From the NCBI RefSeq assembly GCF_013035425.1, contig NZ_WQHX01000001.1, positions 124,001 through 188,000 on the forward strand: 64,000 nucleotides of DNA, written 5' to 3'. A program made the position numbers and the translations under genes. Below, one piece after another: positions 24,001 to 42,763 of this stretch. The stretch's first letter is position 1; each line of letters begins with the position of its first letter. Origin of the DNA: Ruegeria arenilitoris (lineage in GTDB: Bacteria > Pseudomonadota > Alphaproteobacteria > Rhodobacterales > Rhodobacteraceae). The notes beneath the pieces are model-generated. The model was not told the DNA's origin. It saw nothing but the letters and a program-made list of their open reading frames with translations, and did not search any database.

Positions 24001-25029
24001 TTAAACCGCCGCGTCCTCTTGCGCAGCGGACAAAACGCTTTCCAGCGCCTGCAGCATTATCATGGGCCCGGCGTCTTTCCGCACTGCGCCTTCGGACAGC
24101 ATCCTGCGCCAGCTGCGCGCTCCGGGACGACCTGCAAACAGACCTAACATATGCCGGGTGATCTGGTGCAAACGCCCACCGCTGGCAAGGTGTCTCTCTA
24201 CATATGGCACCATTTTTCTTACCACCTCAAAAGGATCAACGGTTTGCCCTGTTTGAAAAATCAGCCTATCCGCATCAGCCAGAATTTCGGCTGGGTGGTG
24301 ATAGGCGGCGCGTCCGATCATGACCCCGTCCAAACCAGCGTCCAGCATTGCCCGGGCCTGAGTAAGCGAAGTGATGCCACCATTGACCGAGATATGCAGG
24401 TCCGGAAAGGCAGCCTTCATCTGGTAAACCAAGGCGTAATCCAGCGGCGGAATATCCCTGTTTTCCTTGGGGCTTAATCCTTGCAACCAAGCTTTGCGTG
24501 CATGAATTATGACACGGCGGCAACCGCTGGCTCTGATTTGCTCTAAGAAATCGGGGAGGACTTCGGTCGGGTCTTGTTCGTCCACTCCGATCCTACACTT
24601 AACAGTGACATCGACATCGACCACTTCTCGCATGGCGCTGACACAGTCCGCGACGCGACCGGGCTCTCTCATCAAAACGGCGCCAAAAGTGCCGGATTGA
24701 ACCCTGTCGGACGGGCAACCACAGTTCAGGTTGACCTCGTCAAAACCGGCTTGCTCCCCAAGTATCGCGGCCTGAGCAAGCTCCTGCGGATCGGATCCCC
24801 CCAATTGCAGTGCAACTGGATGTTCTTGGGGGCTATGGTCGAGCAAATGCAACGCTCCTCCGCGCACCAGCGCCGGAGCCGTAACCATTTCGGTATAAAG
24901 CAAAGTCTGTGAGCTAAGCAGACGATGAAAGTAACGACAGTGACGGTCTGTCCAATCAATCATAGGTGCTACAGATAATTTAGCGTTATAATTCAATGGT
25001 TTATTATTCACTAAATCACCCGATTTCAT
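24001..25029 (-). CDS. dusA: tRNA-dihydrouridine(20/20a) synthase, 5' end supplied by an inserted element
   Basis: A 342-residue FMN enzyme that reduces U20/U20a in the tRNA D-loop. It shows SVAPMIDWTDRHCRYF, LQLGGSDPQELAQAA, the catalytic Cys loop NLNCGCPSDRVQSG, the phosphate-binding VKCRIGVD and the HARKAWLQGLSPKENR segment diagnostic of DusA. The first 20 or so codons (before APM) are AT-rich and unlike the rest of the gene, and the original 5' end of dusA is found 12.6 kb away at 37521-37610. The reading frame was therefore restored after integration with an element-borne N-terminus and promoter. The start is uncertain: ATG at 25029 or GTG at 25041, neither with a good ribosome site. Confidence 0.93.
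   Translation of the reverse strand: MKSGDLVNNKPLNYNAKLSVAPMIDWTDRHCRYFHRLLSSQTLLYTEMVTAPALVRGGALHLLDHSPQEHPVALQLGGSDPQELAQAAILGEQAGFDEVNLNCGCPSDRVQSGTFGAVLMREPGRVADCVSAMREVVDVDVTVKCRIGVDEQDPTEVLPDFLEQIRASGCRRVIIHARKAWLQGLSPKENRDIPPLDYALVYQMKAAFPDLHISVNGGITSLTQARAMLDAGLDGVMIGRAAYHHPAEILADADRLIFQTGQTVDPFEVVRKMVPYVERHLASGGRLHQITRHMLGLFAGRPGARSWRRMLSEGAVRKDAGPMIMLQALESVLSAAQEDAAV
24947..24972 (-). other. att site copy at dusA (integrase side)
   Basis: This sequence encodes V-A-P-M-I-D-W-T of dusA. It matches 37525-37550 at 21 of 26 positions in the same orientation, with the longest exact run ATCATAGG. It marks the junction between the chromosomal body of dusA and the element-supplied 5' end. 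The exact crossover point inside it is not resolved. Confidence 0.8.
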
Positions 25030-25035
25030 CTGTTT

Positions 25036-25108
25036 TTGCACACATATTGCACACGGCTTGTAAATTCCTTACACACGGTTTGATTTTAATCGCACAGGAA
25101 TTGCACAC
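25036..25108. promoter_or_regulatory. Cluster of TTRCACAC motifs, candidate integrase arm sites
   Basis: TTGCACAC occurs at 25036-25043, 25047-25054 and 25101-25108, and TTACACAC at 25069-25076, between the att copy and the integrase start. A matching cluster of CTGCACAC occurs just inside the other end. Spacing from the crossover site (about 65-135 bp) is what arm-type binding sites of tyrosine recombinases show. The region must also contain the divergent dusA and integrase promoters. Binding is inferred only. Confidence 0.5.
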
Positions 25109-25109
25109 C

Positions 25110-26138
25110 GTGGCCACTATCACACGTTTACCCTCTGGGAAATATCGCGCCCAAGTTCGTAAACAAGGCGTTTACCGCAACCGAACATTCGACCGCAAGG
25201 CCGATGCAAACGCTTGGGCCGTGGATATTGAAAGGGCCATAGCTGGCGGTGGTTCCACTGGCACAATCAGTGTCCCGAAAGATATGACTTTGGGCGATGT
25301 CATTACCGCGTATCTTGAACAGGTAAACGTGGGCCGAACTGTCCACTCCAACCTTACCCGAATGAAAAACCGCATTGGTAATACCACTATCGCCAGCCTG
25401 AACGCAGTCACGTTGCGCGATTACGTAGAAAGCCGCAAATCCGATGGCGTAACGGGCGCAACGCTTGCTGCCGACTTGTCGAACCTGTCATCTGTCTTGA
25501 AGTGGGCAAGGCACGTCAAAAATCTGGACATCAATATCGACCTTGCCAAAAACGCCCGTCAGAGTCTGAGCGCCGAGCGCATAGACACACGTAGCGTTGA
25601 ACGTGACCGCATACCTACTGAGGCCGAAATCAAAGCCCTGTGCGACTATTTCGAGAACAACCCCCGCCAGAAAATCCCAATGGCAGAAATCATTCGTTTT
25701 GCGGCTTCAAGTGCAATGCGTTTGGGCGAAATATGCCGTATTCGAATTGAAGATATTTCTTGGAACGAACGTTCCGTAATCATCCGTCAGAGGAAAGACC
25801 CAAGACGCAAACTGCGTAACGACCAAGAAGTTCCACTTGTCGGAGTTGCATACGACATTGCCCGTAGGCAGGCAGAGGGGCGCACAGAAGGCCGCTTGTT
25901 CCCCTATTCAGCCGCCAGCGCCAGCACCGCCTTTACACGGGCCGTAAACAAGCTGGGCATTGAAGACCTGCACTTTCACGACCTGCGACATTTGGGGATT
26001 ACCGAACTGTTCAGGGCGGGATTGTCTACGCCGTTGGTTGCCGTTGTTTCTGGGCATAAAGATTGGAAACATCTGAAACGCTACACGAACCTGAACGCCC
26101 AAGATGTTCACGCCGCTTTGGAGGGCAAGCAATTATGA
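25110..26138 (+). CDS. Tyrosine recombinase/integrase of the dusA-associated type
   Basis: A 342-residue phage-type integrase. The start is a GTG giving VATITRLPSGKYRAQVRKQG, the usual opening of an arm-binding AP2-like domain; the frame further upstream covers the att/arm region and is not credible. A core-binding SAM-like domain follows (about residues 70-160). The catalytic domain has Arg in SSAMRLGEICRI, Lys in RQRKDPRRK, the HxxR box as FHDLRHLGI, His in VVSGHKDWKHL and the nucleophilic Tyr in KRYTNL. Its position adjacent to and divergent from dusA identifies it as a dusA-associated integrase. Its stop overlaps the next gene (ATGA). Confidence 0.95.
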   Translation: MATITRLPSGKYRAQVRKQGVYRNRTFDRKADANAWAVDIERAIAGGGSTGTISVPKDMTLGDVITAYLEQVNVGRTVHSNLTRMKNRIGNTTIASLNAVTLRDYVESRKSDGVTGATLAADLSNLSSVLKWARHVKNLDINIDLAKNARQSLSAERIDTRSVERDRIPTEAEIKALCDYFENNPRQKIPMAEIIRFAASSAMRLGEICRIRIEDISWNERSVIIRQRKDPRRKLRNDQEVPLVGVAYDIARRQAEGRTEGRLFPYSAASASTAFTRAVNKLGIEDLHFHDLRHLGITELFRAGLSTPLVAVVSGHKDWKHLKRYTNLNAQDVHAALEGKQL

Positions 26139-26963: not shown

Positions 26964-27323
26964 GTGCCGAATATGAGTGAATACCAAGAGACCTTTCTGA
27001 CATTGACGCCGTTGTTGCAGGCGCAATTGTCAGACTTGATTGCATCGACGCCCCGCCCCCGATACTCCGAGACCGTCAAGGCGATGTTGCTTGAACACGG
27101 TCTGATTACCGAGAGTGAAGTTTCCGAACTCAAGGGCGAGGAAACCACCACAACCCAAGCCAACCGCGCCCGTGGGAAAATGCCCCCGCACTACAAGTGG
27201 GGAAGCCTGATTTGCTATCACGCTGATGACATCGCCGCGATGATCAAAGCCGAGCGTGTAGAGAACGCCGCGTACAAGCGCCGCAAGGTGACCAACAAAG
27301 ACCTGTTAGGCGGTGCGTCGTGA
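26964..27323 (+). CDS. Hypothetical element protein, possible excisionase/regulator
   Basis: A 119-residue protein (an ATG three codons downstream, at 26973, is an alternative start). The N-terminal part is helical (SEYQETFLTLTPLLQAQLSDL). A Thr-rich linker leads to a basic C-terminal part with KMPPHYKWGSLICYHADDIA, a layout loosely like MerR/AlpA-type winged-helix excisionases, where a Trp-containing strand precedes a helix. It overlaps the next gene by GTGA. The excisionase idea rests on position next to the integrase and is weak. Confidence 0.55.
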   Translation: MPNMSEYQETFLTLTPLLQAQLSDLIASTPRPRYSETVKAMLLEHGLITESEVSELKGEETTTTQANRARGKMPPHYKWGSLICYHADDIAAMIKAERVENAAYKRRKVTNKDLLGGAS

Positions 27324-27613: not shown

Positions 27614-30385
27614 ATGATGCCTAAAGATATATCGACGCGGGGACATCTGACAACCGCAATAAATCGCGGTTACCATTTGGGTGATCTTGTCCCGCTCATT
27701 CCCGTCGGCGCTGCGTTGAAGCCCGAAACACGCAATCAAGACGGATCGGTAAATCCACCTTTGGAACTGGAACCAAACGCCTTCGGCAAGACACCAGGTA
27801 AATTTATTACAACGTCTACAGGCGGTTATTGGATGCGCCGTCGGGCTTGGAATAGCACCGACATCACCGATGCTGAAGTCATCGGTCACGATCTGGCAGG
27901 GGCATCACTTGGCCTTAAAATGGGCATCAATCTGGCGGGTTTTGATGTCGATATTACAGACCAAGCCGCAATGGACCTAATTCGACCTGCGCTTATTCAG
28001 GCGGGCGTTGAAGGGCCGATTAGGATAGGCCGAGCGCCGAAGGCCCTGTGGCTTTTCCGCGTCCACGGCGATCCGATTAAATTCCGCCAGATACCTTTGA
28101 CGGGCGGACATCTGATTGAAGTGCTTGGCGTGCGGTCCAGTGGCAACCCATCACAGGCCGCAGCATTGGGCCAACACCCGTCTGGTTCCTTCTACAATTG
28201 GGAAGGTTACGCGCCGAACGACCTGCCCCCGATAGACGGCTTGCCAGTTATCGACCAAGCGGGAATGGATCGCATCTTGGATGCGACTTTGGGCGTCGCT
28301 TCACTGGTCGGAATGGTGCCTGCGAAATCCGAATACGAGACAGGCGGCAATCCCGAAACGTCATCAATGGGACTGCACGCCGATCCAGAGATTTGCGCGC
28401 GCATAATGGAACTGATGCCCAATGATGAATCCGTGGATTGGGACGGCTGGAAAATCCGCGTCGGAATTCCGCTCTACAACGCGATTGGCGTTGAATTAGG
28501 TTGGCCGCTGTTTGAAGCGTGGTCGAAGAAATCCCCAGCCTATGACCCGCACACGACCGAACGCACGTGGCATCGGGAAATGTGGCCCAACAATATGACC
28601 AGCGGTTTCGGCTCGCTTGTGAAGCGGCTGCGCACGGCTATGGGCGGCACGTTACCAGCCGACCTAGAAGGCAGCTTGGTGAAGCGGAGATTTGACCACG
28701 CCAAAGGCCAGCACAATTCAGCCAGTGCAGCCCCTGCCCTGCCATCTGTAGAGGACGATGACTATCAAAGCCCATTGGCTGACCACGTGCGTGAACACCT
28801 GTTCCCATTGGTCACGATGTCGCCGCTGGATGTGGATGCAAATCTGGACCGCCTGTCAGGTACTTTCGGCATCGGCAAGCAAACGTTGAAGGCCGAGCTA
28901 AAACGCATCCGACAACAGATGCAATCGGTCCAAATCGCGGGCGACTTTACCAACATTGACGTCATGCGTGACCAATGGTTCGCGGGTTGTGTTTACGTCG
29001 TAAAGCGCAACAAAATCTTTTCGCCCCACTATGGTCTGTTGGACCAAAAGCAGTTCAAAGCGACTTATGGCGGGGCGGTGTTTCAGATGTCGCGCGATGG
29101 TCAGGCGACCACAACCGACGCTTGGAAGGCATTCACTGAAAACCGTGTAATGAGATTTCCGCAAGCCGAATTTACCTGCTTTCGACCTGAATACGACTTC
29201 GGCGCAATCGTGACGCGTGCGGACGGCAGCACAGCCGTGAACACGCTCAAGATGCCCAACATACCATTCGACAACAAACCGCCCGAACCGTTCCTGACCC
29301 ATCTGGAAAAGCTACTGCCCAACCGACGCGACCGCGAAATTCTGCTGTCGTGGATGGCCGCTGTCGTTCAGAACACGGGCCGCAAGCTGATGTGGTCACC
29401 CGTCCTGCAAGGCACCGAAGGCAACGGCAAGTCGTTCATTATGAAAGTGATGGAATATTGCGTTGGCCAGAACCTGACGCATTGGGTCAACCCCGAAGAT
29501 ATGCACGAAAAGTACAACGGCTATCTGGCAGAAAATCTGCTGATATGCGTTGAAGAAATCCATATGTCCGACCGCCGCGAAATCTTGGACCGCCTGAAAA
29601 AGTACATCACAGGCGACCGCGTTGAAATCCGCAATATGAACGAAAACAAAATCACGATGGATGTGCTGGCCGTCTTTATGTTCTGCACGAATTACAAAGA
29701 CGCCATTTTGAAATCTGTGAATGACCGTCGGTTTGCCGTGTTCTTCACCGCGCAACAAACAGCCTACGACATCGAAGCGCACGGTATGGATGCGGAGTAT
29801 TTCCGCAATCTCTGGACGTGGGCAAACAATGGGGGGATGGCATCCATCCTTGGCTATCTCAAAACGTACCGCATCACCGATGCCAACCATCCGCTGATTG
29901 GCGCAACGCGTGCGCCGAAGACATCCAGCAATGAAGAAGCTGTTGAGGCATCAATGGGCAGCTATGAGGCAATGATTTTAGATTTGGTTGAAGAAGGTCA
30001 CCCCGGTTTTTTGAACGGCTGGATTAACGCGGACATTCTTTGGTTGATGATGGAAGACAGAATGCATATGCGGCCCAATTTCCGCGCAATCAGTTCGGCG
30101 CTGACAAATTTGGGCTATCAGAAAGTTAAGCCGCGCGTTCGTCTGCTATCTGGTGACCGTAGATTGACGCAGTTATATAGCAAGCAGCCTATGTCTACAG
30201 ACGGCCCGTCAATTATAGAACGTTACAACGCGGACCAAATTATCAAGCCGTGGATAAATACCAGCGAAATTAAAGTACCGATGGCTGATTATAATGCGGC
30301 TGTAGAGTTAATGGACGGTACGAAATTAACGTATGGTTTTGTTGTAACGCTTCCAAACACACAATTTCGGTTCACGGATCACTAA
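27614..30385 (+). CDS. Primase-polymerase / D5-like helicase fusion replication protein
   Basis: A 923-residue replication initiator-like protein. Residues about 60-220 look like a bifunctional primase-polymerase domain (NLAGFDVDITDQAAMDLI with the D-x-D metal pair, PIRIGRAPKALWLF, and the GQHPSGSFYNWEG loop with the catalytic His). Residues about 258-335 match the PriCT_2 linker (PNDESVDWDGWKIRVGIPLY). The C-terminal helicase (DUF5906, P4/D5-type superfamily 3) has Walker A GTEGNGKS near residue 600, Walker B-like NLLICVEEIH and sensor 1 VFMFCTNYKDAI. P4 alpha-like proteins of this build replicate satellites and plasmids from a linked origin. A ribosome site (GTAAGG) precedes the ATG and a hairpin terminator follows at once. 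Confidence 0.9.
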   Translation: MMPKDISTRGHLTTAINRGYHLGDLVPLIPVGAALKPETRNQDGSVNPPLELEPNAFGKTPGKFITTSTGGYWMRRRAWNSTDITDAEVIGHDLAGASLGLKMGINLAGFDVDITDQAAMDLIRPALIQAGVEGPIRIGRAPKALWLFRVHGDPIKFRQIPLTGGHLIEVLGVRSSGNPSQAAALGQHPSGSFYNWEGYAPNDLPPIDGLPVIDQAGMDRILDATLGVASLVGMVPAKSEYETGGNPETSSMGLHADPEICARIMELMPNDESVDWDGWKIRVGIPLYNAIGVELGWPLFEAWSKKSPAYDPHTTERTWHREMWPNNMTSGFGSLVKRLRTAMGGTLPADLEGSLVKRRFDHAKGQHNSASAAPALPSVEDDDYQSPLADHVREHLFPLVTMSPLDVDANLDRLSGTFGIGKQTLKAELKRIRQQMQSVQIAGDFTNIDVMRDQWFAGCVYVVKRNKIFSPHYGLLDQKQFKATYGGAVFQMSRDGQATTTDAWKAFTENRVMRFPQAEFTCFRPEYDFGAIVTRADGSTAVNTLKMPNIPFDNKPPEPFLTHLEKLLPNRRDREILLSWMAAVVQNTGRKLMWSPVLQGTEGNGKSFIMKVMEYCVGQNLTHWVNPEDMHEKYNGYLAENLLICVEEIHMSDRREILDRLKKYITGDRVEIRNMNENKITMDVLAVFMFCTNYKDAILKSVNDRRFAVFFTAQQTAYDIEAHGMDAEYFRNLWTWANNGGMASILGYLKTYRITDANHPLIGATRAPKTSSNEEAVEASMGSYEAMILDLVEEGHPGFLNGWINADILWLMMEDRMHMRPNFRAISSALTNLGYQKVKPRVRLLSGDRRLTQLYSKQPMSTDGPSIIERYNADQIIKPWINTSEIKVPMADYNAAVELMDGTKLTYGFVVTLPNTQFRFTDH

Positions 30386-31574: not shown

Positions 31575-33767
31575 ATGGCTATGAAACGGCAACTTGAACT
31601 CTTTCCAAAATTACCGAGCGACAAACAGCTTTTGTCCGACTTTCCCGAGTTAGCTGCAGAGTTTCATCGCACTGAGAACGGCTCGAAGACGCCTGAAGAC
31701 TTTACCAAGGGAACTTCGAAAAAAGTTTGGTGGCGTTGCCAAAATGGACACGAATGGTCTGCGCCAATATCCAATAGGACAAGACTGGGTAATGGTTGTC
31801 CGTATTGCTCGGGTAAGTTGGCAACGGCTGAAAACAACTTGGAAGTCGCAAACCCTTCGCTGTGCAAAGAGTGGAACAACGAAAAAAACAAAAAAAAGCC
31901 AAGGGACTATACCCCGCGTAGTTCCGCGAAAGTTTGGTGGCGATGCGAGAAAGGACACGATTGGCAGGCTCCCATCAGTAACAGAAACTCATCGCAAAAT
32001 ACCATTCTTCGCGGCTGTCCTTATTGCACAAACAGAAAAGTATGTGGTGACAATAACTTTGCGTTTTTGCATCCCGAAATGGCGAGAGAGTGGCATCCGG
32101 AAAACAAAGAACAACCCGAAAAGGTTCTGGCTACTTCAAACAAGAAAGTTCGTTGGAAATGCTCTGAGGGGCATACTTGGCGCGAAAGCCCAAGCAACAG
32201 GGCTATGCGGGTATATGGATGCCCTGAGTGTTCCAAGGAAATTCGCGGTGACTCTTATCGAAAGGCTACTGAGCATCAGAATCTCCAAACGGAGAACCCG
32301 ACCGTTTGTAAAGAATGGCATCACGACAAGAATGAGAAACCGCCGAGTTTCTATGTGTCGGGGAGCAATGATGTAGTTTGGTGGCGTTGTCAAAATGGTC
32401 ATGAGTGGCAAGCAGCAATTTATTCTCGAACCAATCCAAACGACGGAGTTGGTACGGGTTGTTCATTTTGTTCGGGCAGACGAGCCAGTGCCGAGCGAAA
32501 CCTCGCGACCAACCATCCAGACGTTGCCGCCGAGTGGCATCCTACAAAGAACAAACTTAACCCAACAGACGTAACGCCTAAATCAAACAAGGTGGTCTGG
32601 TGGCGCTGTGAGAATGGTCACGAATGGAAGACAGATATTGCCACGAGGACAATGCAAGGAACTGTCTGTCCGAAGTGCAGCAACCGCATCCAGTACTCGA
32701 AAAACGAAATTCGAATTCTGACAGAGTTACATGCATTAGTAGGCGACGTTGAATGGCGTCATAAAATCGACGGTGTCGAAGTTGATGTCTACCTACCCAG
32801 TTTATCAGTTGCGATAGAGTACGATGGTGATTACTGGCACCGCGACAAGGAGGAAAAAGACAAGAAGAAGCAGACGATTATTCAGGCTCGCGGCATAAAA
32901 CTGTTCAGAGTAAGGGAAGCGCCACTGCCTGCATTGTCAGATGAAGATATTATCGTTCCTGGCGGTTCGCTCCTTAGCAAGGAAACTATGAACGAATTGG
33001 TTTTGCGTGTTGGACTAGAGAAGATAGCAGAAGATCGCTACCTCTCGCATTCTGACTTTTTGAACGATGACTTGTATCGCAAGTATCTAGACTTATTCCC
33101 GTCGCCACTCCCTGAGAAATCGTTGGCGAGCCTGAATCCAACGCTTGCCGCAGAATGGCATCCAAAACGAAACAGACCTCTCACTCCATCGAACTTCACC
33201 GCACGTTCTGGTCATAAAGTATGGTGGCAGTGCGATAAGGGTCACGAATGGGAGGCGTCAATAGGGATGAGAGACTACTACAACGCGAAATGCCCTTGCT
33301 GTAGTGGAAGGAAAGCAACTCCGGAAAACTGTATGGCGGTGACCCGCCCCGATATGGCCGCGGTTTGGCACCCAAAGAGAAATGGTGAAGCTACGCCAGA
33401 AAATACAAAGGCTGGCTCAGGGATAAAACGCTGGTGGCTATGCTCGCAAAACCCTGACCACGAATGGCAGCAAACACCCGACAAATTGCAACACCATCTC
33501 CCGGACAACTTCTGCCCACATTGTCGTGAAGAGCGAAATCCGCCGTTGGCGTCCACCCACCCCGAAATCGCTCGGATGTGGCATCCAACCAAAAACGGCA
33601 AAGTTACTCCTGATGACGTCAAAAGCGGCTCTTCCACATATCGCTGGTGGGTATGTCCAGAAAATCAACGCCACGAATGGGAGAATTCGCCAAGCAATTT
33701 AGCAAACCCGAACCGAAAACTCGGCTACTGCCCATTTTGTACCGGACGTCGTGTGTTCAAAGGGTAG
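31575..33767 (+). CDS. Eight-repeat zinc-ribbon protein with internal Vsr/DUF559-like nuclease domain
   Basis: A 730-residue protein with eight DUF4379-like treble-clef/zinc-ribbon repeats, each of the form hP.laxeWHp.kN..P.d...s..kvwWrC..GHeW......R....gCp.C. Five repeats occupy about residues 20-372 and three about residues 515-728. Between them (about residues 374-490) lies a restriction-endonuclease-like domain: SKNEIRIL, then VEVDVYLPSLSVAIEYDGDYWH, then KKQTIIQARGIKLFRVRE. This matches the Vsr/DUF559 arrangement of D, E-x-D and K. The zinc repeats probably recognise nucleic acid and position the nuclease. An isolated gene in a mobile element suggests a one-gene defence or interference role, but this is inference. 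A second possible start lies two codons on. Confidence 0.85.
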   Translation: MAMKRQLELFPKLPSDKQLLSDFPELAAEFHRTENGSKTPEDFTKGTSKKVWWRCQNGHEWSAPISNRTRLGNGCPYCSGKLATAENNLEVANPSLCKEWNNEKNKKKPRDYTPRSSAKVWWRCEKGHDWQAPISNRNSSQNTILRGCPYCTNRKVCGDNNFAFLHPEMAREWHPENKEQPEKVLATSNKKVRWKCSEGHTWRESPSNRAMRVYGCPECSKEIRGDSYRKATEHQNLQTENPTVCKEWHHDKNEKPPSFYVSGSNDVVWWRCQNGHEWQAAIYSRTNPNDGVGTGCSFCSGRRASAERNLATNHPDVAAEWHPTKNKLNPTDVTPKSNKVVWWRCENGHEWKTDIATRTMQGTVCPKCSNRIQYSKNEIRILTELHALVGDVEWRHKIDGVEVDVYLPSLSVAIEYDGDYWHRDKEEKDKKKQTIIQARGIKLFRVREAPLPALSDEDIIVPGGSLLSKETMNELVLRVGLEKIAEDRYLSHSDFLNDDLYRKYLDLFPSPLPEKSLASLNPTLAAEWHPKRNRPLTPSNFTARSGHKVWWQCDKGHEWEASIGMRDYYNAKCPCCSGRKATPENCMAVTRPDMAAVWHPKRNGEATPENTKAGSGIKRWWLCSQNPDHEWQQTPDKLQHHLPDNFCPHCREERNPPLASTHPEIARMWHPTKNGKVTPDDVKSGSSTYRWWVCPENQRHEWENSPSNLANPNRKLGYCPFCTGRRVFKG

Positions 33768-34188: not shown

Positions 34189-34965
34189 TCAATCTTGGTC
34201 ATCCCACTCGGTTTCGAACTTGTTACCTTTGGATACGTTCTCAAAAGCAGATATTACCCGCAGGTTCCAAGGTACGTGTAGACCTGAAATATTCTCGCCT
34301 TGAAGCGGAACGATGTGGTCAACGTGATGCTGCTCTCCAGTTTCGTATTCTAAATTTGTTCGCATCGCATAAGCGAGACGCATTTCAGCTCTCTGCTCTT
34401 TGGTTAGCCAGTTCGGCGTTCGATCCATTTTCGCGGCGCGACGTACCGCGTTCTCAGCGGCACGGATTTCGGGATTTGCTTTTTTATACGCGCGCATTCT
34501 GGCGTTGTTTTTTTCCCGATCACGCTCCGCTCTTGCGGCAATTCGGTCAGGATGTCTTTTGCGATACGCCTGTTGGCGTTCTGCCGCCCACTCGGGATTG
34601 GCTTTATGATAAGCTGCCGAGCGTTCAATGTGCTTGCGAGTGTATTCGGGACAAACGCCATACTTTTCTCTGTATGACACCACGGAGCGTTCTAACGCCT
34701 TTTCCCGACATTTTTCAGGGTTACGCCAATAGTAAGCCTTAGCGTTTTTTCTACCAAGTTCTTTGCCACGTTCGCTTGTGTCATATTTGTGCGAGATTTC
34801 TTTTCTGCGATGTGGGTTGTCTTTGTTCCAATTCGTCGCCTTGCTAATCCTGCACGGTTTGCAAACGCGGCCATCTGGCAGACCAGTTTTCTTAGCTAAG
34901 TACCAATGCTCAGCGTTCGCGGGCTTATCCTCTCCGCACACTTTACAAGTCTTCGTCTTATCCAT
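34189..34965 (-). CDS. HNH endonuclease with zinc finger and basic repeats
   Basis: A 258-residue protein. The N-terminus has a CxxC...CxxC finger (KTCKVCGEDKPAN ... RVCKPCRI). The middle is a long, highly basic helical region with repeated Y..xNPE/HPDR units (YYWRNPEKCREKA, YHKANPEWAAERQQAY, RKRHPDRIAARAE, YKKANPEIRAAE), which probably contact DNA. The C-terminal HNH nuclease core is HHVDHIVPLQG, then HVPWNLRVISAFENVSKGNKF. It may be a homing, nicking or defence endonuclease. The start MDKTKTCKVCG is chosen because it begins just before the finger; a longer frame adds 13 residues. Confidence 0.85.
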   Translation of the reverse strand: MDKTKTCKVCGEDKPANAEHWYLAKKTGLPDGRVCKPCRISKATNWNKDNPHRRKEISHKYDTSERGKELGRKNAKAYYWRNPEKCREKALERSVVSYREKYGVCPEYTRKHIERSAAYHKANPEWAAERQQAYRKRHPDRIAARAERDREKNNARMRAYKKANPEIRAAENAVRRAAKMDRTPNWLTKEQRAEMRLAYAMRTNLEYETGEQHHVDHIVPLQGENISGLHVPWNLRVISAFENVSKGNKFETEWDDQD

Positions 34966-35092
34966 CGTCAAGTCGCTCGTTAAACCGTTTTCTAAACTCA
35001 GCACCCCACTAGCTGCGAAATAGGAAATTGGCTCGGTCTACGCTTGTGATTTTCTGCCAACTGCGACGCCAAAGTTCGATTTGATGGCGCAC

Positions 35093-37520: not shown

Positions 37521-37610
37521 TTATTCTGCCCCATCCATCATAGGAGCGACCGAAAGGCGAAAATCACCATAATTATTTATAATATCTGAATTTTCGTCTT
37601 TTCTGTTCAT
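37521..37610 (-). pseudogene. dusA: Displaced original 5' end of dusA
   Basis: On the minus strand an ATG at 37610 opens a frame of 29 codons beginning MNRKDENSDI and ending DFRLSVAPMMDGAE before a TAA at 37521-37523. The SVAPMMD segment is the conserved DusA N-terminal motif, so this is the pre-insertion start of dusA, cut off from its body by the element. The present dusA reads KLSVAPMIDWTDR at the same place. The AT-rich DNA to the right of 37610 should be the original dusA promoter. Confidence 0.85.
37525..37550 (-). other. att site copy at the far end of the element
   Basis: Matches 24947-24972 at 21 of 26 positions, in direct orientation, and encodes V-A-P-M-M-D-G-A of the dusA remnant. 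The differences are mostly at third codon positions. This is what is expected if the element brought a mimic of dusA from another host lineage. Confidence 0.8.
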
Positions 37611-37823
37611 TTTAACAACTGCCTGTTTACAGCCGATCGTTGTCTGCTCTGGTCTATTGGTACAACAAATGCCGCATCGCAACACCAAAAGCTGCAACTT
37701 GGCGGACCATCCGTAAGCGAGAACGCGGGATCAGCGTTTGTTTCTATTAAGTAAAATGTCCTACAGATCAAAGTCCATTGATGTCATTCCCAGCGTCATG
37801 CTGGCACTGCCTTCCCGTTTGAA

Positions 37824-37979
37824 ATGCACGGGACGCCGCCACAACTTGCGGCATTGTTGAACCTTGGATCATTGTTGTCTCTTCAACACCATACCTGGTT
37901 CAAAGAGACCGTGGGCAAGTATGACGGCTCGGCGTCGACAAAAAAGCTCAACAAACTGATTAAGCCGAACGCCAAATAA
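37824..37979 (+). CDS. Possible 51-residue protein or gene fragment
   Basis: An ATG at 37824 opens MHGTPPQLAALLNLGSLLSL, followed by a basic end (STKKLNKLIKPNAK) and TAA. The composition looks protein-like, but there is no clear ribosome site and no family match; the frame continues upstream for a few codons, so it may be the tail of a decayed gene. An inverted repeat follows directly. Confidence 0.35.
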   Translation: MHGTPPQLAALLNLGSLLSLQHHTWFKETVGKYDGSASTKKLNKLIKPNAK

Positions 37980-38015
37980 GCACCAATCGTCCTAAGCAGG
38001 CAAGGCGATTGGTGC
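37980..38015. repeat. Inverted repeat, possible bidirectional terminator
   Basis: GCACCAATCG (37980-37989) and CGATTGGTGC (38006-38015) form a perfect 10-bp stem with a 16-base loop, between the convergent short frame and the 38046-38717 gene. No T-run follows on either strand, so termination is possible but not established. Confidence 0.5.
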
Positions 38016-38045
38016 AATGCGGTTGTCAGTCTGAACCGAAACCCA

Positions 38046-38717
38046 TCATTCATATGGGTTCGGCGGCGGTAGACCTTTAGCTTTTGCATCCTTACTGGAC
38101 ATAACATGCTTTTCAGCTCTTTCTGCCAAATTAACATCCACTTGGCGTAAGATGTCCCAGAACTCCTGACCATCTTTTGGGGTTTTATGATCCACAATAT
38201 CGATGGTGTCAGGGGACCAAAGTTGAACCAGGCGCGTTAACTGGATTAACGACATGGTTCCGTTATTTGTTTTCACTTCGGAGTATTGGCAGCCCCCTAC
38301 TCCGCCACGGCCAGCTGAGATCAAACCAAGTTCGTCCTTGGGCAACAAAGCATATGACGAACTGTCCATTCCAAGTCGCCCCAAAGGAGAGCTAGCACCA
38401 AGTGCAGGTCGCCACGGGACACCAGCATCACCACCGTCTCCACCGACTGATGTTCCGGATCCGGTCACGAAAGCATTACCGCCTTTGCCTCCGTAACCGC
38501 TGCCACCACTTCGACCTCCGTTCCTTCCAACAGCGGTACCGTCTCGTCCGACGGAAGCGTTCCCGCCGTCTCCACCACCGCCTAATGTTCCTCGCGGGGG
38601 TCTTCTCCCGTGTTTCAAATACAGGGCCAAAGCAGAAATAATTACCATAGCCACCGCAGCAACACCGGCCATCCAATCAGGTATATCCATAAAATCACTC
38701 AACTTTTGATCAATCAA
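38046..38717 (-). CDS. Gly-rich single-TM protein, unknown
   Basis: A 223-residue protein with one TM helix near the N-terminus (WMAGVAAVAMVIISALALYL), a strongly Gly-rich linker (GTLGGGGDGGNASVGRDG and GGSGYGGKGG) and a soluble C-terminal part (SLIQLTRLVQLWSPDTIDIVD). The linker has phage-tail-like GGxGG collagen-like character but too few regular triplets to call collagen. It lies outside the dusA element, in the flank that used to be upstream of dusA. Internal ATG at codon 10 is an alternative start. Confidence 0.6.
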   Translation of the reverse strand: MIDQKLSDFMDIPDWMAGVAAVAMVIISALALYLKHGRRPPRGTLGGGGDGGNASVGRDGTAVGRNGGRSGGSGYGGKGGNAFVTGSGTSVGGDGGDAGVPWRPALGASSPLGRLGMDSSSYALLPKDELGLISAGRGGVGGCQYSEVKTNNGTMSLIQLTRLVQLWSPDTIDIVDHKTPKDGQEFWDILRQVDVNLAERAEKHVMSSKDAKAKGLPPPNPYE

Positions 38718-39032
38718 TGATCAAACTATCGTAGCCCAACGCCGCTGTGGCAAGAAACTATTTTAGATTGTTTATACGATTGAAGTTAAACCCAAGGGTG
38801 CAGGACAATTGTTCCCATGCGTTTCCCCGGAGCCTTTTTACCGCCATATTTTCGGCAAAAAGTCACGACAGAGTTGGAGCCTTAGACAACTCGGTCGCAG
38901 TTTCGACGCGGCCATACGGAATTGTTCCCAACGATCCTTGTACTGAGCCTACCAATCTCGCGGCTTCCAATTCGACAGGATGCCGATCTGCAAACTAGGT
39001 GTGCAAATCGATAGGAATACATAAGCGGCCAC
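38718..39032. other. Intergenic, no gene seen
   Basis: I see no coding region or structured element that I can support. Short open frames lack ribosome sites and family features. Confidence 0.5.
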
Positions 39033-39590
39033 TTATTTAGCCTCATATCGCAGCTCTATGGGTTTTTGTGGCCCCATCAATCCTGAAAATTCACTCTGAA
39101 ACAAGCCTACAAAAGATGTCGAGCAGTCATAACTGCAAATAAGTTTTGCCAGTCCTGCAATTCCATCTGATCGAATTGGACTTTACCCAGCGATTGGACG
39201 CAATTCAGGTCAAACATGGGAAGATTTCGAATTTTTTACGGCGAAAGTGATCCGCAGCAAGTAATCTCGGGAAATCTTGTTACTCCATTCGTCCTGACGG
39301 ATAAACATATTCTGAAAATCAAAGTTTATCTTCATACCTGCAACCTGTGATTGAAAAAATTTAGTTATCACGATCTGGCCACGCCGGTATGCGTCTTGGG
39401 AAGTAAACTCTAACTGGGTCCAAAAATGATAAATTCCTTTTTGTGCAATTTCTTTAGCGCCGTTGTAATGGCGAAAGCAGTTGCATTTGCTACTTTTGTA
39501 TGCCTGGCGCCCGCATCCGCAAATGTTAAAATGGCTTAAATTGAGCCTCCGACCAAATCGGATCTTTCGGGACAGCGACGCCTGAAAACG
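39033..39590 (-). pseudogene. Decayed gene with a Cys-rich (SEC-C-like) motif
   Basis: One minus-strand frame of 186 codons, read from 39590 down to the TAA at 39033-39035, is protein-like except for two internal stops within nine codons (after KNSKSSHV and after ELRPIAG). It includes CGCGRQAYKSSKCNCFRHYN, a C-x-C-x(8-10)-C-x-C pattern like a SEC-C zinc motif, then a Phe/Tyr-rich segment (GIYHFWTQLEFTSQDAYRRG), and ends SGLMGPQKPIELRYEAK. No in-frame ATG exists at the 5' end, where a stop lies at 39591. I read it as an inactivated gene of unknown family. Confidence 0.55.
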
Positions 39591-39799
39591 TTAATTTTGA
39601 CCACACCAGATACGGGGACTCGCTAGGCTGCCAAAAGGTAATTTGGAGCAGGCCCGCTCTTGCACGGTCTGGGGCTTGCTGTTTTGGATCGTGTTTAAAT
39701 TTTTTCTCGCGAAGGACGCGACTGGTTGAAACATGCTTGAGCGATCTCAAACGGCGCGAACGAGTCCGGCCAAGAAACACCCACCGTGTTGGCCACCAT

Positions 39800-40000
39800 C
39801 TAGTTCATTATGAGGTCACACTGAATCTCGAAGTTTAATTCGTTGGATGTTACGCCGCCAGAAATCCGATTAACGCGTAACAGCCCGGTTGAGGCGGAAA
39901 CAACAGTGGATATTTTTGCAAAGCCGGCGACCAGGACGGCATCCGGTGTATGGATCGCAATCTGGCAGGACAAGTCTTCTGCGACCAAACGAAGCTGCAT
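39800..40000 (-). CDS. Possible 66-residue protein, unknown
   Basis: The frame MQLRLVAEDLSCQIAIHTPD continues with regular alternating strands (VLVAGFAKISTVVSASTGLL) and NELNFEIQCDLIMN. The pattern looks like a small beta-protein rather than a shadow. It begins 37 bp after the stop of the glycosyltransferase gene on the same strand. No family recognised; the antisense frame at 39843-40088 is judged non-coding. Confidence 0.4.
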   Translation of the reverse strand: MQLRLVAEDLSCQIAIHTPDAVLVAGFAKISTVVSASTGLLRVNRISGGVTSNELNFEIQCDLIMN

Positions 40001-40037
40001 CCGAACAATTCCGATCGCAGGTCAGGTCGATCAAAAT

Positions 40038-41648
40038 TCAGATCTTCTGAACGGCAACCTGCGCACCCTTTATCGCTTTGATGCGTAAATTGGCGGCGTT
40101 TTCGCCCAAAAACTCGTGAAAGGCGCGCATAACCCCATCTTTCCACCATCCTTTACGGTGGTAGTCATCCAACATGATGACACCCCCAGTCTGCATCTTA
40201 GGCAAAATTGCTTTTAGGTCCGCTTTTACACCTTCGTAGGAGTGATCCCCATCTACGTAGGCGAAGCCGATGCTGCCATCTTTGAACTGGTCCATCGCAG
40301 GGACAGAAAAATCCCGAATAACAGCAATTTTGCCGCGCGCGATCTCATCCTTATATTTGTTCTTCACAGACTCATAAATACGATCCATGTCCTTCTTGCT
40401 GCGTGCGCCAGCCAGCGAAACACCATCTTCGGGGTCTTCCTGAACACCCCAAGGATCGATGAGGAACAACTTGGACGGCCGCAGACCTTCCAGCAAAATC
40501 TGCGAAAACTCGCCCTTCCAAACGCCTATCTCGATGCTCAGTTTGCCTTTTGGCATAAGCTCCAACAGTTCGCGTCGAAGACCATCTTTTCGCTCTCGCT
40601 GTTTGGCGCGCTTGCCCCGTCGCACGGTCGCGGTTACCGGATTCGCCACGGGCTTGGCTTCCACCTCAGTGTTTTGCAAAACATTAACAAAATCAGCCCA
40701 ATCCGACCTGGCCCTGAGGTTCTTGGCCTTAGACAAATGCCAAGCGCAAGCATCATCATGTAATTCAGCCAGTCGGGCATCGTTCATGATTTCCGCGCGT
40801 ATTTTGTGCATTTTTGGCATATGGCCAAGGATAGAACGGTCCTCCACATGGTTGTGGTTCATCATTTTCCAGTATTCCAAACCCTGGTCTTGGCTTATGT
40901 GGTTTGTGCGGCCACGATCACGCTTAACCAGAAAGCTATCGGTACTGCGAACTGCATAGTGATGAATACGTGCATAATCGTGGCTGAAGCCACGCCATGC
41001 ACGCCACTTGACCTGATCAGCAGGAAACAGATTGCCACCGGAGTCGCGCCAAAGAACACCTTGATAAGGAGCGTCGGGATCAATCGCGTGTTTCGCGTCG
41101 ATCCGGGGGCGATGGGCGCGAAACCTATTGAACTTCCCATTATTTCGGAAAAGCGTTTTAAAGCCTTTCGCCCTTTGATGCGGGTATTTGTCTTCGGGTG
41201 CCGCGCGGAAAAAAGTCTCGGGCACCGGGTGATTTACAAAGTCGTTTTGACCGCCTTGACCAAACATGCGCCAGCACATCGAGATCGCATCTGCATCGCC
41301 GCTAGCCGCGACAAAACTGCGAATGTCGCCTCCGGGCACGCGAACATTGATATATTCGTCCACGTCCAGACTTAGAATCCAATCCGAAGCAAGATAACTG
41401 GAGTGACTTCTGGCCTTTGAAAAAGCAACAGTCTGCGGTTTCTCCTTGGGACCGACCGGATTACGTTCGTGATGGGCCCAACCCAATTCCTGCATCCGCT
41501 CGGCAATCGCATCAGTTCCATCGTCGCAGTCGTTCGTAAAGATCAGAATATCATCAAAGCCTATCGATCGGTTGTATGCCACCCAATCGATCATGAAAGG
41601 CCCTTCATTCTTCATCGTTGTCACGATGAGAAATGTTTCATCCGTCAT
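40038..41648 (-). CDS. Glycosyltransferase (GT2-like) fused to a class I methyltransferase
   Basis: A 536-residue two-domain protein. Residues about 1-300 are a Glyco_tranf_2_4-type domain: TMKNEGPFMIDWVAYNRSIG, FTNDCDDGTDAIAERM, and the metal-binding DxD-like motif LSLDVDEYINV. Residues about 340-536 are a Methyltransf_24-like SAM domain: SIEIGVWKGEFSQILLEGL, LFLIDPWG, FAYVDGDHSYEGVKADL and GGVIMLDDYHRKG. Single-domain versions of both are common in roseobacter polysaccharide loci; the fusion suggests glycosylation and methylation of one surface product. The start MTDETFLIV is chosen as it opens the first strand. Confidence 0.85.
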   Translation of the reverse strand: MTDETFLIVTTMKNEGPFMIDWVAYNRSIGFDDILIFTNDCDDGTDAIAERMQELGWAHHERNPVGPKEKPQTVAFSKARSHSSYLASDWILSLDVDEYINVRVPGGDIRSFVAASGDADAISMCWRMFGQGGQNDFVNHPVPETFFRAAPEDKYPHQRAKGFKTLFRNNGKFNRFRAHRPRIDAKHAIDPDAPYQGVLWRDSGGNLFPADQVKWRAWRGFSHDYARIHHYAVRSTDSFLVKRDRGRTNHISQDQGLEYWKMMNHNHVEDRSILGHMPKMHKIRAEIMNDARLAELHDDACAWHLSKAKNLRARSDWADFVNVLQNTEVEAKPVANPVTATVRRGKRAKQRERKDGLRRELLELMPKGKLSIEIGVWKGEFSQILLEGLRPSKLFLIDPWGVQEDPEDGVSLAGARSKKDMDRIYESVKNKYKDEIARGKIAVIRDFSVPAMDQFKDGSIGFAYVDGDHSYEGVKADLKAILPKMQTGGVIMLDDYHRKGWWKDGVMRAFHEFLGENAANLRIKAIKGAQVAVQKI

Positions 41649-41803
41649 TCTTTGCTCTCTTGCCTGTACCACCCACGGATTATTGATTTTGTGTTTAAAT
41701 TACAGCTTGGTTTTTGTCCAATCTGGATGGTGGTTGGCGGAATTAGCGCAGTGATCCGAATTGGCCCATGCCCCCGACCTTGCTTAAGATCGCTCGTGGT
41801 TGG

Positions 41804-42763
41804 TTACCCAGCTGCTCCTCGGTTGGCTGGGATCACCTCGTAACCCGGCTCTTCTGGTTCATCGTCTTCCATCTCGGCGGGAAAACCGGGTGCTCGGATG
41901 TCCAATCCAGTCGCTTCCTCCAGTCGTCGTATGATATTGGGTGATAATTCCCTGTCGCCGTAACGCGCTATTCCGTCTTCGAAAATTTTTATCATCAGCG
42001 GGTTTATCTCAAGCGGAACGCCCGCGCGATCGGCAACGTCCTGAAACAGGCCAATGTCTTTTTTGACCAAATCCATCGTGAACGAGATATCACGCGAACC
42101 GTTCAAAATGACCTGACTTTCGGTTTCATGAACAAAAGATGTGCCCGACGAAATCTTGATTGCCTCATAGGTCGTGTTCAGGTCCATCCCAGCAGCTTTC
42201 GCAGTAACCAATGCCTCGGCGCATGTTATCAGGTTCGCCGTAGCGAGGTAGTTGGTAAGAACTTTCAATACAGAGGCCGACCCCAGCTCTCCAGTGTGCA
42301 GCACACGTCTACCCATTGTCGTTAGGAAGGGCAAAATCAGATCGAAAGTACCTCGGTCGCAACCTGCAAAGATAGAAATGTTACCCGTGGCTGCTCGGTG
42401 GCATCCGCCAGAAACCGGACAGTCGACGGCAGATCCTCCTCGGTCGATAACCAGGGCCCCAAGCCGTTTGACCTCGGCCTCGTCGGTTGTGGACATCTCC
42501 ATCCAAATTTTACCGTTTCCGACCTCAGGCAACATTATTTGCATTACCGCGTCTGATGCTGCAGGTGACGGCAAGCAAGTAATCACTGCGTCGCAATCAC
42601 GCATCATCTGTGCCGGATCTTTTGCAGCCTTGGCTCCTTTGGCAACGAAGTCGCTGACAAGATCCGAATTCAGGTCATGCACGGTCAGATCGATGCCGTT
42701 GCGCAGCAGCGACCCCGAGAGTTTTCCGCCCACATTTCCAAGACCGATGAAACCAACTTTCAT
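41804..42763 (-). CDS. NAD(P)-dependent beta-hydroxyacid dehydrogenase (HIBADH family)
   Basis: A 319-residue oxidoreductase of the 3-hydroxyisobutyrate/tartronate-semialdehyde reductase family. It has the N-terminal GFIGLGNVGGKLSGSLL nucleotide fold, the substrate motif DCPVSGGCHRAATGNISIFAG, and the catalytic Lys region SVLKVLTNYLATANL. Substrate cannot be deduced. The Met of the usual GLGxMG motif is Val here. It diverges from the cobalamin operon, sharing a 439-bp intergenic region with the riboswitch. Confidence 0.88.
   Translation of the reverse strand: MKVGFIGLGNVGGKLSGSLLRNGIDLTVHDLNSDLVSDFVAKGAKAAKDPAQMMRDCDAVITCLPSPAASDAVMQIMLPEVGNGKIWMEMSTTDEAEVKRLGALVIDRGGSAVDCPVSGGCHRAATGNISIFAGCDRGTFDLILPFLTTMGRRVLHTGELGSASVLKVLTNYLATANLITCAEALVTAKAAGMDLNTTYEAIKISSGTSFVHETESQVILNGSRDISFTMDLVKKDIGLFQDVADRAGVPLEINPLMIKIFEDGIARYGDRELSPNIIRRLEEATGLDIRAPGFPAEMEDDEPEEPGYEVIPANRGAAG

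What the first reader, a model, noticed from the sequence alone, without database searches (positions are those of the whole stretch)
31575..33767. Eight zinc-ribbon repeats around a Vsr/DUF559-like nuclease: candidate single-gene defence or interference effector
The repeats (five before, three after the nuclease) are regular, each with WWRC..GH.W and a paired CxxC. The central domain has the D, E-x-D and K pattern of Vsr-like nucleases in VDVYLPSLSVAIEYDGDYWH. A modular nucleic-acid reader with an embedded nuclease, carried in a satellite-like element, fits the profile of anti-phage or inter-element competition genes. The modular repeat number is unusual and I know of no experimentally studied example with this exact 5+3 layout; that is my limited knowledge, not a search result.
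Basis: partly seen in the sequence, partly recalled or inferred. Interest (0 to 1): 0.75.

Follow-up and report, generated by a model that had tools for sequence, protein, structure and literature searches.

The report
Zinc-finger-array nuclease carried by islands
A mobile DNA island in this bacterium carries a gene for a predicted DNA-cutting enzyme wrapped in eight zinc-finger units; the same design occurs in many bacteria, sometimes as the only gene of a tiny insertion, and probably attacks rival mobile DNA or viruses, although no activity has been measured.

Summary
In detail: 31575-33767 (+) is an intact 730-aa gene with five DUF4379 treble-clef fingers, a Vsr/EDxHD-type nuclease and three more fingers. 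An AlphaFold2 model (pLDDT 92) matches homing endonuclease I-Bth0305I and Vsr; catalytic-type residues are invariant in 45 sequences. The 5+3 layout is not unusual: of 83 ORFs (80 similarity-ranked relative loci plus the window), 82 have fingers on both sides and nine, the window included, are 5+3. The gene sits in a 12.6-kb island integrated in dusA (attL 24947-24975, attR 37525-37553) with an integrase and a primase-helicase. In ten relatives, repeats enclose a 1.8-4.3 kb unit holding the gene alone or with one more ORF and no integrase, mostly at tRNA, guaA or argJ ends; 12 of 72 start within 600 bp after a same-strand tRNA, against 9 of 904 other genes. Fingers and nuclease are under purifying selection. 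Best reading: a long-site DNA endonuclease of homing-endonuclease kinship, kept as cargo for interference with phages or rival elements. Defence is not shown. Phage members were already described as an EDxHD/Vsr outgroup (PMC12350094).

The parts
31575..33767 (+). 730-aa zinc-finger-array nuclease gene
31650..31817 (+). DUF4379 treble-clef finger 1
   Evidence: E 7.4e-22
31860..32036 (+). DUF4379 finger 2
   Evidence: E 1.2e-15
32082..32237 (+). DUF4379 finger 3
   Evidence: E 2.3e-15
32307..32480 (+). DUF4379 finger 4
   Evidence: E 2.1e-15
32526..32687 (+). DUF4379 finger 5
   Evidence: E 2.2e-20
32697..32924 (+). Vsr/EDxHD-type nuclease domain, residues 375-450
32925..33146 (+). mostly helical extension between nuclease and finger 6; the gap is 67-85 aa in 81 of 82 ORFs
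33144..33311 (+). DUF4379 finger 6
   Evidence: E 1.3e-17
33357..33530 (+). DUF4379 finger 7
   Evidence: E 2.4e-11
33567..33749 (+). DUF4379 finger 8
   Evidence: E 7.3e-15
24947..24975 (.). attL of the island, inside the 5' part of dusA
   Evidence: 24 of 29 identical to attR; DNA identity to ten sister loci ends at 24972-24978
37525..37553 (.). attR of the island, followed by the displaced native dusA start
24001..25041 (-). dusA, with a start supplied by the island
24996..26138 (+). tyrosine recombinase (integrase); the true start may lie downstream of the ORF start
   Evidence: PF00589 E 5e-24
26964..27323 (+). small excisionase/MerR-like ORF (weak)
   Evidence: phrog_66 E 0.0024
27614..30385 (+). 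primase/D5-type helicase (DUF5906, VapE-like, PriCT_2)
34189..35004 (-). endonuclease VII-like ORF in the same island
   Evidence: phrog_1035 E 6.5e-17

Best explanation
The protein is a stand-alone DNA endonuclease. The zinc fingers probably bind a long DNA site from both sides of the nuclease (inferred). The Vsr/EDxHD-type domain cuts it (fold and residues shown, activity inferred). It is related to the EDxHD/Vsr homing endonucleases. In chromosomes it is carried as cargo of site-specifically integrated units: here a dusA island with integrase and primase-helicase, elsewhere in some loci single-gene units without integrase (shown). It is kept by selection on function (shown for relatives). 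The most likely function is interference: cutting invading phages or competing mobile elements that carry the long site, which is rare enough that host and carrier are spared without a methylase partner (inferred).
For: Domains and residues. Model pLDDT 92.4; 3r3p (I-Bth0305I) Z 9.2, rmsd 2.7, 92 aligned, and Vsr 1cw0 Z 8.8, rmsd 2.9, 101 aligned; profile hit to 3r3p E 3.3e-5. Island. Rare in relatives, so probably acquired horizontally: only the window's own genome of 295 in the family search (E 1e-10), 5 of 385 in the class search (E 1e-15, own included). Relatives: at least 407 confirmed stretches, 80 kept, in many phyla. Cargo position: repeat-bordered units and tRNA adjacency; at argJ the same repeat core borders cassettes that hold no such nuclease. 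Nuclease relatedness does not track the site: three guaA-site copies are 35-41% identical over the central region, while a group linked by 68-88% central identities sits next to tRNA genes for Pro, Ser, Leu, Trp and Glu. dN/dS 0.07-0.23 in six pairs, nuclease and rest alike. Precedent: ICP1 Odn, a nuclease related to putative homing endonucleases, cuts a satellite's origin (PMC8263062, passages read).
Against: No activity, target or phage phenotype is known. PADLOC has no model that covers the protein; its hits are weak and the best is a 'homing endonuclease' model (E 1.5e-4). Neighbours within two genes matched 147 (140 proteins) and 36 (126 proteins) PADLOC families at 1e-10, farther genes 51 (140 proteins): inconclusive. 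Solved DUF4379 relatives are mitoribosomal or mitoribosome-assembly proteins, and a Toxoplasma mitoribosome chain scores between I-Bth0305I and Vsr on the nuclease fold (Z 9.0), so RNA or protein binding is possible. Many phage relatives are annotated as homing endonucleases. One argJ cassette joins three fingers to a weak GIY-YIG match, a combination typical of homing endonucleases (recalled).
Confidence: 0.5

Rival explanations
1. Selfish homing endonuclease: the gene spreads by cutting alleles that lack it and being copied in by repair; the island is only where it happens to sit.
For: Nearest solved relative of the nuclease is I-Bth0305I; many phage relatives are annotated as homing endonucleases; three to five CapR/DUF4379/DUF723-like domains plus an EDxHD/Vsr-like domain were described as a homing-endonuclease outgroup in phage group II introns (PMC12350094, passages read). 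Seven of 18 pairs of relatives share some flank.
Against: In 10 of 18 pairs compared, similarity stopped at or near the gene borders with no shared flank, though some contigs end close to the gene. Ten relatives are bordered by direct repeats, mostly of tRNA, guaA or argJ ends. The argJ site is shared with cargo of other kinds. Nuclease and fingers are under purifying selection.
Confidence: 0.25
2. The nuclease drives insertion or retention of its own single-gene unit: it cuts the empty att site (such as a tRNA 3' end), forcing repair from the unit or killing cells that lose it.
For: Repeat-bordered units in which the nuclease is the only ORF of 100 aa or more, without integrase: L037, L075, L081, L091, L093, L102, L110; the gene starts 181-557 bp after a same-strand tRNA in 12 loci.
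Against: At argJ, cassettes without the nuclease use the same repeat core, and one holds a tyrosine-recombinase-like gene (L154). L102 and L110 align over 602 residues at 68% but sit at different tRNA-type ends (Pro-like, Ser). Three guaA-site copies belong to distant nuclease lineages.
Confidence: 0.1
3. The enzyme acts on RNA: the zinc fingers bind structured RNA and the Vsr-like domain is a ribonuclease or RNA-binding module.
For: DUF4379 relatives mt-SAF33 and mS66 are mitoribosomal, and several mitoribosome chains match the nuclease fold (9i05_Xr Z 9.0, 9g6k_L9 Z 8.4); FASTKD4, called Vsr-like in the title of PMC11879112 (listing only), regulates an mRNA.
Against: The residues kept are those of the DNA-cutting Vsr/I-Bth0305I type; mobile-element carriage and phage relatives point to DNA.
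Confidence: 0.08

Closest known systems
EDxHD/Vsr homing endonucleases (I-Bth0305I; phage group II intron HEG outgroup, PMC12350094)
   Same: Vsr-like nuclease joined to small repeated domains, DUF4379-like among them
   Different: Nuclease in the middle of the array, not at the C-terminus; 5+3 fingers here and up to 15 in the sample (9+6), against 3-5 domains; carried in integrated islands or single-gene units instead of introns
Pfam PF14311 DUF4379 and PF18741 REase_MTES_1575
   Same: All eight fingers match PF14311; 33 of 45 central regions match MTES_1575 at E 0.01 or better
   Different: The window protein scores 20.6 bits against MTES_1575's cut-off of 38.2; MTES_1575 itself joins Vsr REase to HEPN, transglutaminase, helicase and wHTH domains (PMC3710099, passages)
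ICP1 Odn
   Same: Small nuclease related to putative homing endonucleases, used in conflict between phage and satellite (PMC8263062, passages)
   Different: Encoded by the phage; its DNA-binding domain is RepA-like and the paper discusses it beside the GIY-YIG enzyme I-TevI
dusA-specific genomic islands (PMC4482086)
   Same: Integrase beside the 5' end of dusA, imperfect direct repeats, island supplies a new dusA start
   Different: No difference in the manner of integration was noticed; cargo was not compared
Vsr mismatch endonuclease
   Same: Fold, Z 8.8
   Different: Only 3 of 45 central regions match PF03852 at E 0.01; Vsr has no finger array (recalled)

Membership tests
DUF4379 (PF14311) proteins | match over the curated cut-off | tested here: met
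   411.7 bits against 24.5, eight stretches
REase_MTES_1575 (PF18741) | match over the curated cut-off | tested here: not met
   20.6 bits against 38.2; 33 of 45 central regions match at E 0.01 or better, cut-off not checked
EDxHD/Vsr homing endonucleases | Vsr-like nuclease fold | tested here: met
   3r3p Z 9.2, 1cw0 Z 8.8 on a model with pLDDT 92.4; Foldseek E 0.0038 and 0.07
EDxHD/Vsr homing endonucleases | catalytic residue pattern of I-Bth0305I | tested here: inconclusive
   D, EYDG, H, K invariant and E nearly so, profile aligned to 3r3p; the defining paper PMC3239194 is not held
EDxHD/Vsr homing endonucleases | moves by homing: related copies share the flanks of one target allele | tested here: inconclusive
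   10 of 18 pairs share no flank, 7 share some, 1 matched only inside the gene; repeat-type borders in ten relatives. Speaks against homing, but was tested on relatives, not on the window copy
EDxHD/Vsr homing endonucleases | site-specific DNA cleavage | not testable with these tools
   needs protein
Known anti-phage defence systems (PADLOC-DB 2.0.0) | convincing match to a listed defence protein | tested here: not met
   best E 1.5e-4 to a homing-endonuclease model over 69 residues; E 0.0016 mREase_II; E 0.0066 PDC-S69
dusA-specific genomic islands | tyrosine integrase beside the dusA 5' end, imperfect attL/attR, new dusA start from the island | tested here: met
   compare PMC4482086
dusA-specific genomic islands | excision as a circle | not testable with these tools
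   needs PCR
Phage satellite (PICI-like) | integrase, regulator and primase-helicase without a full virion gene set | tested here: inconclusive
   integrase and primase-helicase found, regulator weak; eight ORFs of the island were scanned with Pfam and no helper is known

The most novel reading that the evidence does not exclude
A widespread class of self-sufficient single-gene mobile units, made of att repeat, zinc-finger-array nuclease and att repeat, occupies 3' ends of tRNA genes and other conserved genes without an integrase, with the nuclease itself driving insertion or preventing loss by cutting the empty site.
Probability: 0.1. Interest if true: 0.85.

Novelty: new variant of a known kind. 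Interest (0 to 1): 0.55.

Why it matters
If the interference reading holds, this is a large and mostly unnamed family of one-gene, partner-free nucleases with modular readers whose number varies from gene to gene, a natural case for asking whether treble-clef fingers read DNA unit by unit. Even if it does not, the integrase-less single-gene units at tRNA, guaA and argJ ends show a way in which nuclease genes spread that island finders which look for integrases would probably miss (my inference).

Tried and rejected
Exact-word search for the island's repeats found nothing useful; the pair was found only through sister genomes. The stretch right of the island (37560-39700) matched none of 53 other genomes of the genus, so the exact empty site in a close relative was not seen; one sister (L137) has the genes from window 41805 on at about 11 kb from dusA, so 37553-41805 may be variable too. 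A Rossellomorea flank gave only scattered matches and was dropped. At the L036 tRNA-Arg site, one relative (L166) has a single att copy at the tRNA but about 1.1 kb of other DNA before the next shared gene, so it is not a clean empty site; L167 and L168 did not show the att word at two mismatches or fewer.

The idea of hypervariable reading positions in the fingers was tested: columns 38, 40, 44 and 46 of the repeat are among the most variable across 696 repeats, but between close relatives they change no faster than loop columns 10, 11 and 15, and dN/dS is low. No recognition code is claimed.

The defence-neighbour comparison gives families matched, not proteins, and only the top 25 rows; near against far is inconclusive. 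Neighbour genes came from a simple longest-ORF caller: 267 near genes were listed, 266 were scanned (one was left out by my omission); the far set was 140 drawn at random of 207. Pfam on the near genes showed Resolvase in 8 of 266 as the commonest mobile-element family.

A hairpin-like motif TTGCCCTGCAA at the argJ-side end of finger-protein cassettes in Prochlorococcus was followed: present at three argJ loci with finger proteins; within 400 bp of the other relatives' genes it was not found; left unexplained.

Architecture counts and intactness are biased towards this design. The tRNA-adjacency test is not made of independent cases: seven of the twelve belong to one related group. Some of the ten loci with repeats of 14 bases or more may be chance; L073 and L079 were not interpreted. 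In one search, L099 and L102 beat their control by one mismatch only at 16 bases. Names of cargo at argJ other than those scanned are by eye.

Full report
THE GENE. The ORF 31575-33767 (+) encodes 730 aa without an internal stop. Pfam finds eight DUF4379 treble-clef fingers (E 4e-126 in all), five before and three after a central domain, and these are the only DUF4379 matches in this genome at E 0.001. The fingers share a C...H.W and CxxC layout, with small departures in repeats 3, 7 and 8. Repeats within the protein are 30-56% identical to each other, so the array shows no fresh duplication.

THE NUCLEASE. Pfam sees only a sub-threshold MTES_1575 match (20.6 bits against 38.2) and a marginal DUF559 match. 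PHROGs place the protein with phage families named HNH endonuclease, endonuclease and homing endonuclease (phrog_559 E 3.7e-51, phrog_681, phrog_3339); the matched stretches include fingers. A profile of 45 central regions hits the I-Bth0305I structure 3r3p at E 3.3e-5. In that alignment D404, E415-Y-D-G418, H422, K432 and R445 are invariant, and S375, E378, E402 and E448 are at least 90% conserved. AlphaFold2 gives a confident model of finger 5, nuclease, extension and finger 6 (pLDDT 92.4, pTM 0.76). In the VIA-align list the best matches over the nuclease are I-Bth0305I (Z 9.2, rmsd 2.7, 92 residues), a Toxoplasma mitoribosome chain (Z 9.0) and Vsr (Z 8.8, rmsd 2.9, 101 residues), with other PD-(D/E)XK enzymes below; the finger matches mitoribosomal DUF4379 proteins (Z 9.9-11.7 for the first four). 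Foldseek alone is modest for the nuclease (3r3p E 0.0038, Vsr E 0.07).

THE ISLAND. dusA lies at 24001-25041 (-), and a tyrosine recombinase starts beside its 5' end. DNA identity with ten sister loci ends at 24972-24978. A 29-base repeat, 24 of 29 identical, lies at 24947-24975 and 37525-37553. To its right the reverse strand still reads a displaced dusA start ending in LSVAPMMDG, while dusA itself now begins with a start from the island (LSVAPMIDWTD). This is how dusA-specific islands behave (PMC4482086, passages read). The island is about 12.6 kb and holds the integrase, a weak excisionase/MerR-like ORF, a primase/D5-type helicase, the finger nuclease and an endonuclease VII-like ORF, besides unassigned ORFs. 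Satellite-like is fair; no helper is known. Only the window's genome of 295 searched in the family set has the gene, and 5 of 385 in the class set, own included. The closest named relatives are Rhodobacteraceae assemblies at about 50% (L031, L032), from which I infer the taxonomic neighbourhood.

THE FAMILY. By record title they come from Alphaproteobacteria, Gammaproteobacteria, Prochlorococcus, Bacillota, Saccharibacteria, Elusimicrobia, Omnitrophota and others. In these 80 loci and the window, 83 ORFs hold both domains; 82 have fingers on both sides; 5+3 and 4+4 are the commonest layouts with nine each, the window included. The gap between nuclease and next finger is 67-85 aa in 81 of 82. 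Because the 80 are ranked by similarity, this describes the close family, not all of it: two plasmid relatives have the nuclease after all fingers (9+0 and 7+0), and no ORF in 17 viral-contig loci held both domains, although one phage record has 3+4 (L030). Array length changes between near relatives: L060 and L065 are 83% identical over 759 residues but have 4+5 and 4+9 fingers, and 4 of 83 proteins hold a pair of fingers at least 90% identical.

HOW IT MOVES. I compared 18 pairs of relatives. In 10 (71-87% DNA identity) the similarity ends at, inside or within about 45 bp of the gene's borders and no flank is shared; some of these contigs end close to the gene. Seven pairs share some flank and one matched only inside the gene. 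In Prochlorococcus, 130 of 151 genomes matched the argJ query. I fetched 20 of these, chosen by hand for near-identical argJ or for signs of a repeat; one was too short. With L037 and L098 that makes 21 readable: seven have 172-176 bp between the neighbouring ParA-like gene and argJ (empty), one has 326 bp, and 13 carry inserts. Eleven of the 13 show two or more direct repeats with the core GTATATTCGCTATT (three mismatches allowed), up to five in one locus (L160). In L037 the repeats lie 2,231 bp apart and enclose only the finger nuclease. Other cassettes hold other genes: a sulfotransferase-like ORF (L163), a DUF723-like ORF (L155, weak), three fingers with a weak GIY-YIG match (L158), and in L154 a tyrosine-recombinase-like ORF next to a resolvase. 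So at argJ the site is most simply set by a recombination system, not by the nuclease.

The pattern recurs elsewhere. Direct repeats of at least 14 bases flank the gene in 10 of 63 loci against 5 of 167 control intervals (p 0.001). Testing 17 loci for a repeat of the upstream gene's 3' end: clear in L036 (tRNA-Arg; 23 bases exact), L078 (tRNA-Pro; 49 bases exact), L075 (tRNA-Glu), L081 and L055 (guaA); weaker in L110 (tRNA-Ser), L102 (an end like tRNA-Pro; no tRNA was called there) and L099 (guaA); not found within 6 kb in L059, L064, L069, L072, L076, L091, L096 and L104; L063 ends at the gene. L091 and L093 have other direct repeats (23 and 35 bases) around the gene. In seven of these units (L037, L075, L081, L091, L093, L102, L110; 1.8-2.9 kb) the nuclease is the only ORF of 100 aa or more wholly inside; L036, L055 and L078 (2.5-4.3 kb) hold one more ORF, a Fic protein in L055 and no Pfam match in the other two. 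Twelve of 72 genes start within 600 bp after a same-strand tRNA, against 9 of 904 other genes in the same loci (p 2e-9). Seven of the twelve (L059, L072, L075, L078, L096, L104, L110) belong to one group linked by central identities of 68% or more, so the p-value overstates independence. That group sits at tRNA genes for Leu, Glu, Pro, Trp and Ser, and L102 and L110 align over 602 residues at 68%, while three guaA-site copies are only 35-41% identical. The insertion site therefore does not follow the nuclease lineage.

WHAT IT DOES. Six pairs of close relatives have dN/dS of 0.07-0.23 for nuclease and for the rest, so the function is selected. A partner-free nuclease with many binding units, carried as cargo in unrelated mobile units, fits interference with phages or competing elements best. 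Relatives of homing endonucleases can be turned to such use: Odn of phage ICP1 cuts a satellite's replication origin (PMC8263062, passages read). Shown: domains, fold, conserved residues, island, cargo position in some relatives, selection. Inferred: DNA as target, long-site recognition, interference.

WHAT IS KNOWN. PMC12350094 (passages read) describes phage group II intron genes with three to five domains distantly related to CapR, DUF4379 and DUF723 and a C-terminal EDxHD/Vsr-like domain, as a large unrecognised outgroup of these homing endonucleases. The library holds three papers with the word DUF4379; the other two are a fungal gene-transfer study (passage read) and the preprint of the same work (listing). 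Searches for a zinc-ribbon/Vsr defence gene, for finger nucleases with integrases at tRNA genes, and for argJ cassettes in Prochlorococcus returned no title or abstract that describes these (listings only); subscription papers are mostly not held. Tycheposons of Prochlorococcus are known to me by recall and from a listing; I did not compare their sites.

VERDICT. A correct observation and a partly supported interpretation: a new variant of a known kind, of moderate interest. The more striking part lies outside the coordinates: single-gene, integrase-less units at tRNA, guaA and argJ ends.

Noticed in passing
L037, L098, L146-L165 (argJ locus, Prochlorococcus): The argJ 3' end is a cassette site: empty alleles with 172-176 bp, occupied ones with one to several cassettes bordered by direct repeats of core GTATATTCGCTATT; cargo includes finger nucleases, a three-finger protein with a weak GIY-YIG match, a sulfotransferase-like ORF and, in L154, a tyrosine-recombinase-like ORF with a resolvase.
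   Followed up: partly
L037, L098, L158, just before the argJ-side repeat: An imperfect hairpin around TTGCCCTGCAA with differing outer stems at the end of the three finger-protein cassettes; 5 exact copies in six genomes, three of them at these loci, none in two genomes with an empty site.
   Followed up: partly
L081, L055, L099: Finger nucleases downstream of guaA in three distant groups, with repeats of the guaA 3' end in L081 and L055 and a weaker one in L099.
   Followed up: partly
L043 and L092: Two finger-nuclease ORFs side by side in the same contig.
   Followed up: no
window 34189-35004 (-): Endonuclease VII-like ORF next to the finger nuclease in the same island.
   Followed up: no
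window 40038-41672 (-): ORF joining a glycosyltransferase-2-like domain and a Methyltransf_24 domain, outside the island.
   Followed up: no
fold search of the central model: Predicted giant-virus proteins (Klosneuvirus, Terrestrivirus, Marseillevirus and others) match the finger-nuclease-finger model; mitoribosomal proteins match the finger and, in other chains, the nuclease fold.
   Followed up: no
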